This document shows, piece by piece, positions 24,751 to 28,014 of a stretch of DNA of 64,000 bases; position 1 is the first letter of the stretch, and every line of letters starts with the position of its first letter. Below the pieces are notes generated by a model, which searched no databases, was not told where the DNA came from, and saw only the letters and a list, made by a program, of their open reading frames with translations. Where the stretch lies: the NCBI RefSeq assembly GCF_000003195.3, contig NC_012872.2, positions 23,956,066 to 24,020,065 on the forward strand. The letters run 5' to 3'. The translations under genes and the position numbers were made by a program. The DNA comes from Sorghum bicolor. Lineage: Eukaryota > Streptophyta > Magnoliopsida > Poales > Poaceae.

Positions 24751-27700
24751 TCAGGTGTTCAGCAGTGCCTGGATTGCAGATATGGCGCGCAGCCGAATTT
24801 GGTTGGCTGTCTCTATCTCTTTGATATCATCATCGGCAGAACCTTCAATCGGCTTCAATTTCTTCTTCAGTTGCAGCGCTTTACGACCATGGATGTTTCG
24901 TTCCTGTTCAAGATGCTTGATGGCCTCCGGCAGCTGACTATCTTCCTGTTGGGCTTGGGACAGGGCGTCTTCCACTTGCTTGAGTTCAGCCAGCAGAGCT
25001 TCTCTTTTGGCCGATAGATCGGACATTTTCTGCTTCAGTGCGTCACCTGAGGACTTTAAGATGCCGATGTTCTTATGTTTCTCATCGGCTAAGAGTTTTT
25101 CTTTTGCCATCTCCTCAGAAAGTTGGACTTGAGCAGCTCTGTCGGCAAGGCGCCGGGTAGCTCTCTGGTACTGTAACTGCCGGCTTTCTAGATGTGCAGC
25201 GTGGAAGAGTGCTTCCTCGGCATCGGCAGGGATTTGGCCTCTAAGGGTCTTGAACAGAGCTTTGGCTGGGTCGGAATCATCGACCAGTTGGGTTGTGTCT
25301 TGATGAAGTATGGCGGACAACTCCTCCAGCCTAGCTTTGGTTTCTGCCGATACGATTCCAACTGCCTGAGAAGAGCTTGCTTCCTCGCCCTCTTCTTCAA
25401 AGATATCAATGGCGAAGGAAAATAAGCTGTCGGGAGAATCTTGTTCCTGAAGATGAAATAAGTTAATTTTATGGTCAAGACGTCAGCGGATGATACCGAT
25501 TGAAAGGTGGATGACTTACTTGCTTCAGGGCAATTTCCTGCCTTTGACTCAGAGAGGCCGATAGAGCTGCAGGTTGATCGGCAGATGTTGCCGATAGAAT
25601 GATATCGCCTGAAAGAAGACAGGAAGGATTATAAGAAGAAATGAAAATAAGTTTATCGGTAGGAGTATTATTGGGATATGCTACCCGGAATTGGAACAAC
25701 AGTTGTTTGGATTGAGGAGACCGCCGATGACATAACTGGACCTGCCGGGCCAGTTGTTTGTTCGCCTACGTCAGATAATGCGCCTGCCGTTCGAGGTACT
25801 TCTTGCTGAGGTTCTTCGGTCTGTAGTGCTTCCTGTATTGATTGAGGAGATGTTCCTTGCTGTGCTTGGGCTCCTGGAGGGGAAGGAGAAGATCCCACCG
25901 GGATTGGAAACACCGGAGGAGGAGGAGAAGTTGCCACTTTCTGACGCTTTGGTCCAGTCTTGACGCCTTGGACGCCTTTCCTCTTTGGCTGGCTAGACTG
26001 GGGGAGATCGGCACCTTGACGTTTGGCTTTTGCCGATGTACCAGTTTGCTGCAACAACAATAAAGAGTTTATAAGCACAGATAACCGATATAAAGATAAG
26101 TCAGCATAAATAAAAAGGGGTTTTAAACAGATTGCCTTGAAAGCTTGCGCCAGAGTGGAAGCAGTTACCGGTGGAGATGTCTGAGTTTTCCTGGTAGTAA
26201 CTTTCTTGAGACGCGCACCCCGATGTACGATGGAGGCCACAGTGGGAGCATTGTGGCCGATTGAGGAGATCGGGCCTGATGGGAATAAGTCGATCGGCTT
26301 GCCACTCCTGCTGACCGATGGGGGGGTGTTATCAATCTGCAAAAAGAATATGGGGGTAAATTATCAATGAGAATAGTATTGGAAAATGAGACATCGGTTT
26401 AAAGCACTTACAATGTCGTCAGGAACTTCATATTCGGGGTCGATCATGCCGCGGTATGAGAGAGCCGATCTGCAGAATAAATTCTCCTTCCATTCTGCCC
26501 ACCATAGCTTGTATGCTTGAGTGATAAAGGCAGCTGGAACCCATTCTGACAGATCTACATCTGTATCGGCATTTGGTGGTAACTGGGCTACTCGAGTCCA
26601 CTCGAGGAGGTTAGCGATGGGTTCTCTGGGCTTTATTACATCGGCATAAGGAAGTGCGATCGGCAATTGGCCGAAAGCCAGCTGGCGAGCTAATGCCGAT
26701 GGGTTATAGAATTCATAGGTTTGGGGAGAGGTTTTCGTGCTGCCGAAGAAGTTCACTGGTATGGCTCTGGGAGTCACGATTGCCATCATCACCTCGTTGT
26801 CCCTATCAAGAGCGTCGTCGAATGGATTGAAGGTCAGAGGGAGCATGCTGTCTGGGTCGTCATAAGCTAGCCACGGTCGTTCATCTCTGGCCAGACCCTC
26901 ATACAGCGTTTCGAAGAATCGGCCGATCTGATCCGGAGCGTTCCCTGAACCGGGTAAAACTATAACGGCTTCGCCGAAGTTCAGGGGGGCACGTGTTGCC
27001 GATTCCTCTTCGCCCAACACATGGTTCTCGGCTATATCTCTTGGGAAGTGCTGAGAGAACAAGTTGAGATCAAGGCGCTTGTGCAGGTGCAGATTGAGCC
27101 ACATATTGATAAACCACCAAGGACCTCCCAAGTTGCCGATAGGTTGGCCGAGTAGGAGTTTCTGGGCTACCTGATGAAGGAGGTGATAAACAGCACCGAG
27201 CAGATAGCGGCCGAGAGGAAATTGACCGCCGCTAGCCAATCTTTCTGCTGCCGATAGGTAGACAGAAGTCGGTCCTGCCGATCGACCACAGAATACGAAC
27301 TTGTCTAGCCACATGTTCAGAAAAGTGGTTTGTTCCTTTAAGGTAACAGGTCCTTTCCCGCGGTACTTCTGGATGTACCCTGACCAGCCGCCGATAGCGC
27401 GAGTCTCCACTTTGGCGCTGGGGGCGGTATCGAAAAAGTGGGTGCTATCGGCAGAAGATATGTCTAACCCAGTGAGCATGGCTACATCGGCAAGGGTAGG
27501 AGAAGCAGGGCCGTGGCCGAAAATAAAAGCGTTGAGAGTATCTGACCAGAAGTAAGGTGCGGCTATCAGCAACGACTCGTTTCTGTGCATATCGGCAATG
27601 GACAGCCTGATGCATTGAGCTAATTTTCTCTCACCCCATTGAATTTCATAAGAGTTGCTGACCCTCAAGAACCAGTCTTTCCATCCTACAGTAGGGCTAG

Positions 27701-28014
27701 GCCAAGAACGAAAGGTGTCTTTCCATAGATCTAGAGTAAAGTTTTCAGCTCTAAAGGGAATCCTGTTGGTTTCTGCGTTGATGAGGTCGGTTGGATCTGG
27801 ATCCCCTAGAGGGCCGAGACACTGAAGATGTGGTTGATCGGTAGGGATGACAATTTTGTTGGATAATTCCTGGTGTTTTGGGGAATAAAAATACAAAGAA
27901 AAAGGGGAAGGAAAATATTCGGTAAGGTAAATCGCAGATGAACAGGAATGCAGGAAAAAGGTACAATGGGTGAGATGAAAGTCTGACCTCGGGGACGACG
28001 AAACCGACGGCCAT
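24751..28014 (-). CDS. E5 antisense gene: plant mobile domain protein, six exons
   Basis: I predict exons 28014-27988, 27869-26412, 26336-26136, 26048-25685, 25608-25520 and 25446-24751. They total 2835 nt with no internal stop, giving 944 aa. Introns are GT-AG except the third, which is GC-AG (AAG|GCAATC). Exon 2 (residues 10-495) carries the plant mobile domain, with the hallmark stretch HGPASPTLADVAMLTGLDI. Exons 3-4 are basic and Pro-rich, with a bipartite nuclear-signal-like PKRKGVQGVKTGPKRQK. Exon 6 (231 aa) is a long charged coiled coil. The ATG has AAGATGG context and no upstream ATG lies between it and the TATA box at 28164. PMD proteins MAIN and MAIL1 of Arabidopsis act in transposon silencing and gene expression. 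The function here is unknown; a nuclear regulatory role is inference. The whole structure recurs in E4. Confidence 0.85.

What the first reader, a model, noticed from the sequence alone, without database searches (positions are those of the whole stretch)
24751..28014. A Ty3/gypsy element carries an intact six-exon antisense gene for a plant mobile domain protein
Seen: on the strand opposite gag-pol, six exons with consensus-like splice sites join into one 944-aa frame, with a TATA box and an ATG-free leader upstream. Retrotransposition through a spliced sense RNA would not remove these introns because they lie on the other strand. Known: PMD proteins (MAIN, MAIL1 in Arabidopsis) act in transposon silencing and gene expression, and Tat-lineage elements can carry extra frames of unknown role. 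Inferred: the element captured or evolved a nuclear regulator with a coiled-coil tail. I know of no description of this exact exon structure and PMD/coiled-coil architecture.
Basis: partly seen in the sequence, partly recalled or inferred. Interest (0 to 1): 0.88.

Follow-up and report, generated by a model that had tools for sequence, protein, structure and literature searches.

The report
Retrotransposon studded with its own address-tag
A young grass retrotransposon carries, on its opposite strand, an intact gene for a protein predicted to fold like a known transposon anti-silencing protein, and its DNA is sprinkled with a short word kept unchanged even at silent codon positions, which suggests a jumping gene that recognises itself.

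The parts
16992..29341 (+). Element 1: complete Ty3/gypsy retrotransposon, 12,350 bp, TSD GTATA at 16987-16991 and 29342-29346
   Evidence: Boundaries, TSDs and LTR comparison
16992..17679 (+). 5' LTR of element 1 (688 bp, identical to the 3' LTR)
   Evidence: 0 differences in 688 bp
28654..29341 (+). 3' LTR of element 1
17627..21373 (+). gag-protease open frame (stop to stop; its first codons lie in the LTR)
   Evidence: Retrotrans_gag and gag-asp_proteas
21361..24606 (+). pol open frame (stop to stop; RT, RNase H, second RNase H, integrase), overlapping gag-protease in another frame
28165..28172 (-). TATAAATA, putative core promoter of the antisense gene
   Evidence: also at 39155 in copy 2
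27988..28014 (-). antisense exon 1 (MAVGFVVPE)
26412..27869 (-). antisense exon 2, PMD; predicted VANC21-like fold
26136..26336 (-). antisense exon 3; a GC-AG intron follows
25685..26048 (-). antisense exon 4 (proline-rich linker with basic stretches)
25520..25608 (-). antisense exon 5
   Evidence: equivalents in the Miscanthus models P0006 (whole) and P0012 (lacking the last 14 residues)
24751..25446 (-). antisense exon 6; helical, coiled-coil-like tail with stop codon
   Evidence: only weak Pfam matches, best E 0.056; in the rice P0043 model residues 679-753 form one long helix
16992..29341 (.). Dispersed motif ATCGGC (commonest extended form CATCGGCA): 94 sites, 44 plus and 50 minus, mean spacing 131 bp (sd 137), in LTRs, gag, pol, PMD exons and spacers; none in the five introns
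16126..40314 (+). Element 2: older relative, interrupted in gag by element 1 (pieces 16126-16991 and 29342-40314), TSD CATAG; carries its own antisense PMD gene
35702..38998 (-). Antisense PMD gene of element 2, same six exons, 955 aa

Best explanation
The antisense gene encodes a sequence-specific DNA-binding protein that marks its own element family. The PMD exon has a VANC21-like fold. The protein recognises ATCGGC (commonest extended form CATCGGCA), about one site per 130 bp on either strand through the element, coding sequence included. The helical tail probably dimerises or recruits partners, so that the protein coats dispersed copies of the family and opposes or reverses host silencing in trans, as VANC proteins do for VANDAL DNA transposons. 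Shown here: the gene, its purifying selection, the motif array, its conservation at synonymous sites, and the predicted fold match. Inferred: that this protein, not another, reads this motif; that it is made and acts in the nucleus; that the outcome is anti-silencing rather than another self-directed function such as replication, integration targeting or self-limitation.
Confidence: 0.52

Rival explanations
1. The motif is a real duplex-DNA signal but is read by a host factor (a transcription factor, replication or chromatin protein) or by another element protein such as integrase; the PMD gene does something else.
For: The motif is dense in gag (7.8 per kb) and pol (6.2 per kb) as well as in the PMD exons (10.6 per kb), so its position does not tie it to the antisense gene alone. 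No binding data exist.
Against: Other elements in the window have no comparable word, apart from a weaker CTCGAG excess in one; in the four fetched stretches without close relatives of the family the best 6-mer has z 6.3 or less, although these too had been picked for a close motif pair. The independent fold match of the PMD is to a protein solved on its target DNA.
Confidence: 0.28
2. The antisense gene matters as RNA: its transcript pairs with the sense RNA and the protein is incidental; the motif is unrelated.
For: Antisense transcripts of such elements have been proposed to give dsRNA and siRNA (PMC7264820, passages).
Against: dN/dS 0.048 in exon 2 and 0.088 over all exons; frames and splice sites kept in both copies; 45 of the 59 best-scoring genome matches to the PMD show no stop inside the match, a set biased towards intact copies.
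Confidence: 0.05
3. The motif is a by-product of codon usage, composition, short tandem duplication or gene conversion, without function.
For: It is reflected in protein sequence too: dipeptides that the motif encodes exceed residue shuffles (z 4.5 in the PMD protein; 4.7 in gag and 3.7 in pol), so part of the count could be protein-driven.
Against: Exceeds synonymous shuffles in six of six gene pieces tested; spacing is irregular, not tandem; of 18 one-base neighbours only ATCGGT stands out, 29 against 5.4, the next being about twofold (TTCGGC 13 vs 5.9, ATCGAC 11 vs 5.5); conservation is confined to the six bases.
Confidence: 0.04
4. The PMD protein binds the motif, but in order to restrain or target the element (self-silencing, copy-number control, integration into or away from its own kind) rather than to wake it. 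This shares its first half with the best explanation, so the odds do not add up to one.
For: MAIN and MAIL1 help to silence transposable elements (PMC5418596 and PMC7156037, passages). Element 1 sits inside element 2, one example of self-insertion, which may be chance in a genome with many copies.
Against: A gene that only restrains its carrier is not easily kept (inference); the fold match is to an anti-silencing protein.
Confidence: 0.2

Closest known systems
VANC proteins of VANDAL DNA transposons, Arabidopsis (PMC5735166, passages; PMC10398659, abstract and outline)
   Same: Element-encoded protein; short sequence motif repeated in the element; predicted fold matches VANC21 solved with its DNA
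   Different: Here an LTR retrotransposon, gene antisense to gag-pol, PMD and no DUF1985 match, motif dispersed through coding and noncoding DNA in both orientations, not noncoding tandem repeats; binding and anti-silencing not shown
PMD-A proteins of Gypsy elements and genic PMD-C proteins MAIN/MAIL1 (PMC5418596, PMC7156037, passages)
   Same: Same Pfam domain PF10536; PMD-A is described as Gypsy-encoded
   Different: No target motif array for Gypsy PMDs in the passages read; MAIN/MAIL1 are host genes that help to silence elements
Antisense aORFs of Grande, RIRE2 and Retand, TRP28 PF04195 (PMC7264820, passages; PMC11963269, passages and first part of section 11)
   Same: Antisense gene between pol and 3' LTR; nuclear localisation reported for the Grande protein; DNA binding predicted for TRP28
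   Different: Different domain (no PF04195 match); here six exons and a PMD
Proteins of Miscanthus (P0006, P0012), Saccharum (P0058) and Oryza (such as P0039, P0042, P0043, P0046, P0049, P0050), several of them named aminotransferase-like or plant mobile domain proteins
   Same: Same PMD, with a C-terminal helical region in the long ones; Miscanthus models give comparable splice joints (by eye)

Membership tests
Ty3/gypsy, Tat clade | gag-PR-RT-RH-INT order between LTRs with TSD | tested here: met
Ty3/gypsy, Tat clade | second (additional) RNase H domain | tested here: met
   RT_RNaseH at 388-489 and RVT_3 at 527-646 in pol; dual RNase H as a Tat feature: PMC9289625, passage
Ty3/gypsy, Tat clade | placement in an RT tree (Ogre, Retand or other lineage) | not tested
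   no reference tree was built
PMD proteins (PF10536) | Pfam PMD above curated cut-off | tested here: met
   53.8 bits against 34.9; 49 of 49 members of A1 match at E up to 1
PMD-A clade | phylogenetic position with Gypsy PMDs | not tested
   clade taken from PMC5418596 (passages); no tree built
VANC anti-silencing proteins | encoded by the element | tested here: met
VANC anti-silencing proteins | VANC21-like fold | tested here: met
VANC anti-silencing proteins | DUF1985 sequence domain | tested here: not met
   not among the 22 Pfam families matched at E up to 1 by 49 members
VANC anti-silencing proteins | target motif in noncoding tandem repeats | tested here: not met
   dispersed, in gag, pol and PMD exons
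VANC anti-silencing proteins | binds its motif and removes DNA methylation | not testable with these tools
   needs EMSA or DAP-seq and methylomes
Retand TRP28 aORF | PF04195 domain | tested here: not met
   only PF10536 found in the 944-aa protein at E up to 0.001

The most novel reading that the evidence does not exclude
Gypsy PMD proteins are the LTR-retrotransposon counterpart of VANC: sequence-specific readers of a short word that the element has written into its whole genome, protein-coding sequence included, so that one protein made by a few copies can coat and protect the whole family. In this 709-Mb genome the 8-base word stands at about 15 times its reversed control (129,594 against 8,734); that this family causes the excess is inferred from the stretches read.
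Probability: 0.45. Interest if true: 0.93.

Novelty: new variant of a known kind. Interest (0 to 1): 0.84.

Why it matters
The role of the PMD and of antisense genes in plant Gypsy elements is an open question in the passages read. The motif array gives a direct, cheap test: one protein domain, one 8-base probe. If confirmed, it would give the PMD a biochemical function, link MAIN/MAIL1 to sequence recognition, extend sequence-specific anti-silencing from DNA transposons to LTR retrotransposons, and show a selfish element embedding regulatory sites in its own codons at a scale that may shift word counts of a whole genome.

Tried and rejected
Novel capture of a PMD by this element: rejected, because PMDs are known from Gypsy elements. 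RNA signal: disfavoured by orientation balance. Codon or composition artefact: rejected by synonymous shuffles. Regional conservation as the cause of motif conservation: rejected by controls within 150 nt. CpG hypomethylation alone: it cannot explain the few changes at the non-CpG core positions, 10 of 344. dN/dS control: of the five other frames of the exon-2 region four gave 1.4 to 6.2 and one, on the plus strand and with 22 codons skipped as stops, gave 0.12, so the low value is not wholly unique to the coding frame.

Searches that led nowhere: pol and PMD in viral contigs and pol in genome contigs found no relatives. The profile of A1 against PDB sequences gave two weak matches, E 0.11 and 0.25, to Abraxas 2, beyond the PMD. 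The 30 loci cut (PMD places scoring best against Pfam; at most 27% identity to exon 2 in the three that matched it) show 0 to 1.0 ATCGGC per kb and no word with z above 10.4 (one of them, L051, is half masked). The two PMD-bearing stretches L055 and L056 matched none of the gag, pol or PMD queries and hold 2 and 1 ATCGGC. Dipeptide test on 30 of the 65 relatives, motif-type against reversed dipeptides at positions not shared with element 1: ten Oryza-type proteins 267 against 132; five of another clade 20 against 25; P0059 9 against 11; eight mixed 105 against 74; six near relatives 26 against 36. Rows are related and no DNA was seen, so it is only a hint that the motif is old in grasses. Absences in the fold lists are told in the Against line. 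Species: contig 1 has the length that I recall for sorghum chromosome 1; recalled, not tested.

Full report
What is there. The window holds a nested pair of Ty3/gypsy elements. Element 1 spans 16992-29341 (12,350 bp) with a 5-bp duplication GTATA and two 688-bp LTRs that do not differ at any base, so it inserted recently. It lies in the gag region of an older relative, element 2 (16126-40314, duplication CATAG; LTR pieces 95.4% identical). Element 1 has open gag-protease and pol frames on the plus strand with RT, RNase H, a second RNase H and integrase; a second RNase H is a feature of the Tat family (PMC9289625, passage).

The antisense gene is real as sequence. Six exons between 28014 and 24751 on the minus strand join into 944 codons. 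The PMD matches Pfam at 53.8 bits. Intron 3 needs a GC-AG donor. In element 2 the same six exons give 955 aa with a single in-frame length difference, and all splice dinucleotides, including the GC donor, are kept; exon identity is 76-93%, intron identity 54-83%. TATAAATA and an ATG-free leader are shared. Nei-Gojobori dN/dS is 0.088 for the whole gene and 0.048 for exon 2, against 0.090 for gag and 0.084 for pol. In the host genome 59 matches to the rice relative P0043 were scored out of 8,382 first-look candidates; 45 of the 59 show no stop inside the match. They are the best-scoring ones and so biased to intact copies, and only one of them was read. Relatives among the 65 hits include named proteins of Miscanthus, Saccharum and Oryza. 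Transcription and splicing were not tested.

A dispersed word fills the element. A scan of all 6-mers in 16,201-40,300 put ATCGGC/GCCGAT first: 199 seen, 10.9 expected from dinucleotides, z 55.7; the best word outside has z 10.3. In element 1 there are 94 sites, 44 and 50 by orientation, mean spacing 131 and sd 137 bp, as for random placement. Outside the pair, 39,811 bp hold 10 ATCGGC and no CATCGGCA, against 200 and 69 within 24,189 bp. Shuffling synonymous codons within each gene gives 5.8, 4.2 and 5.5 sites where gag, pol and PMD have 29, 20 and 30; element 2 pieces behave alike (16 vs 3.3, 22 vs 4.4, 31 vs 4.5). The word is sharp: of its 18 one-base neighbours only ATCGGT clearly stands out, 29 against 5.4. 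The five introns hold none in 429 bp.

The word is under selection. Between elements 1 and 2 (89% identical over 10,919 aligned bases) 77 of 86 sites of element 1 are unchanged; nearby CpG hexamers with the CpG in the same place give a mean of 31.3 and a maximum of 45 in 10,000 draws; in the reverse direction 77 of 96 against a mean of 43.1 and a maximum of 60. At fourfold-degenerate sites 2 of 88 changed inside the word and 247 of 1068 outside (gag 0/30 and 47/341, pol 1/26 and 66/367, PMD 1/32 and 134/360; pooled Fisher P 1.2e-7). Divergence falls from 10.7% in the flanks to 2.5% over exactly six bases; the bases just outside, though biased in composition, are not conserved. Sixteen stretches of contig 1 were fetched because close motif pairs had been listed there: 12 of 16 are the same family and have ATCGGC as top word; the other four have a best z of 6.3 or less. 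Against those copies (HSPs under 60% identity dropped) fourfold changes inside and outside are 10/202 and 860/2365 in gag, 18/149 and 787/2120 in pol, 8/91 and 436/937 in exon 2, 0/9 and 50/133 in exons 3-5, 10/41 and 175/397 in exon 6; copies are not independent, and L022 exon 6 goes the other way (5 of 7). One more copy, L057, 95% identical in exon 2, has 17 ATCGGC in 2 kb. Genome-wide, CATCGGCA occurs 129,594 times against 8,734 for the reversed word, and close pairs 12,821 against 25. How much of that excess lies in this family was not measured beyond the stretches read.

How it most likely works. A protein with a VANC-like DNA-binding fold, encoded by the element on its other strand behind its own promoter, reads a word written through the element and recruits or blocks chromatin factors there, in trans, for the copies of the family. 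In VANDAL elements VANC lowers DNA methylation over whole elements (PMC5735166, passages). Placing sites inside codons makes every part of the element recognisable and costs little where synonymous freedom allows; some sites are reflected in the protein itself, for dipeptides the word encodes are in excess. Which protein reads the word is not proven.

What is known. PMDs in Gypsy elements, antisense genes behind pol and the suggestion that element-encoded PMDs might counter silencing (passages of PMC5418596, there for MULE-captured PMDs, and of PMC8616336) are in print. I found no report of a target word in a Gypsy PMD element; searches: in an open-licence library only, seen as listings with passages of a part of the papers. 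The publication that goes with 9LNJ was not found there and may already compare VANC with PMD.

Verdict.

Noticed in passing
window 45492-50314: Another LTR element (LTRs 95% identical, gag-like frames) holds the palindrome CTCGAG about 20 times in about 4.8 kb, roughly ten times expectation; possibly a second family with its own word.
   Followed up: partly
L055, L056 (G000:C1:2507000-2516500, G000:C6:43063500-43073000): A different PMD family (open frames of 435 and 442 aa, no match to the gag or pol queries; perhaps a DNA transposon) has a local cluster of TAACTAA repeats towards one side, more like the tandem arrays of VANC targets.
   Followed up: partly
window 16992-29341 and 16126-40314: Element 1 is inserted inside gag of a relative; its LTRs are identical over 688 bp, so the insertion is very recent.
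   Followed up: yes
window 21361-21373: gag-protease and pol frames overlap by 13 nt in different frames, suggesting a translational frameshift.
   Followed up: no
window 29342-32315: The gag frame of element 2 is interrupted by an in-frame stop between two open pieces; described only.
   Followed up: no
G000, whole genome: The 8-mer CATCGGCA occurs 129,594 times against 8,734 for the reversed word; close pairs 12,821 against 25.
   Followed up: partly
P0006 (Miscanthus): A public gene model runs from the PMD exons into an unrelated integrase-like piece, likely an annotation artefact across nested elements.
   Followed up: no
window antisense region 24751-28014: dS between the two copies is about 0.78 in the antisense gene but about 0.27 in gag and pol, as if this region had been exchanged between subfamilies.
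   Followed up: no
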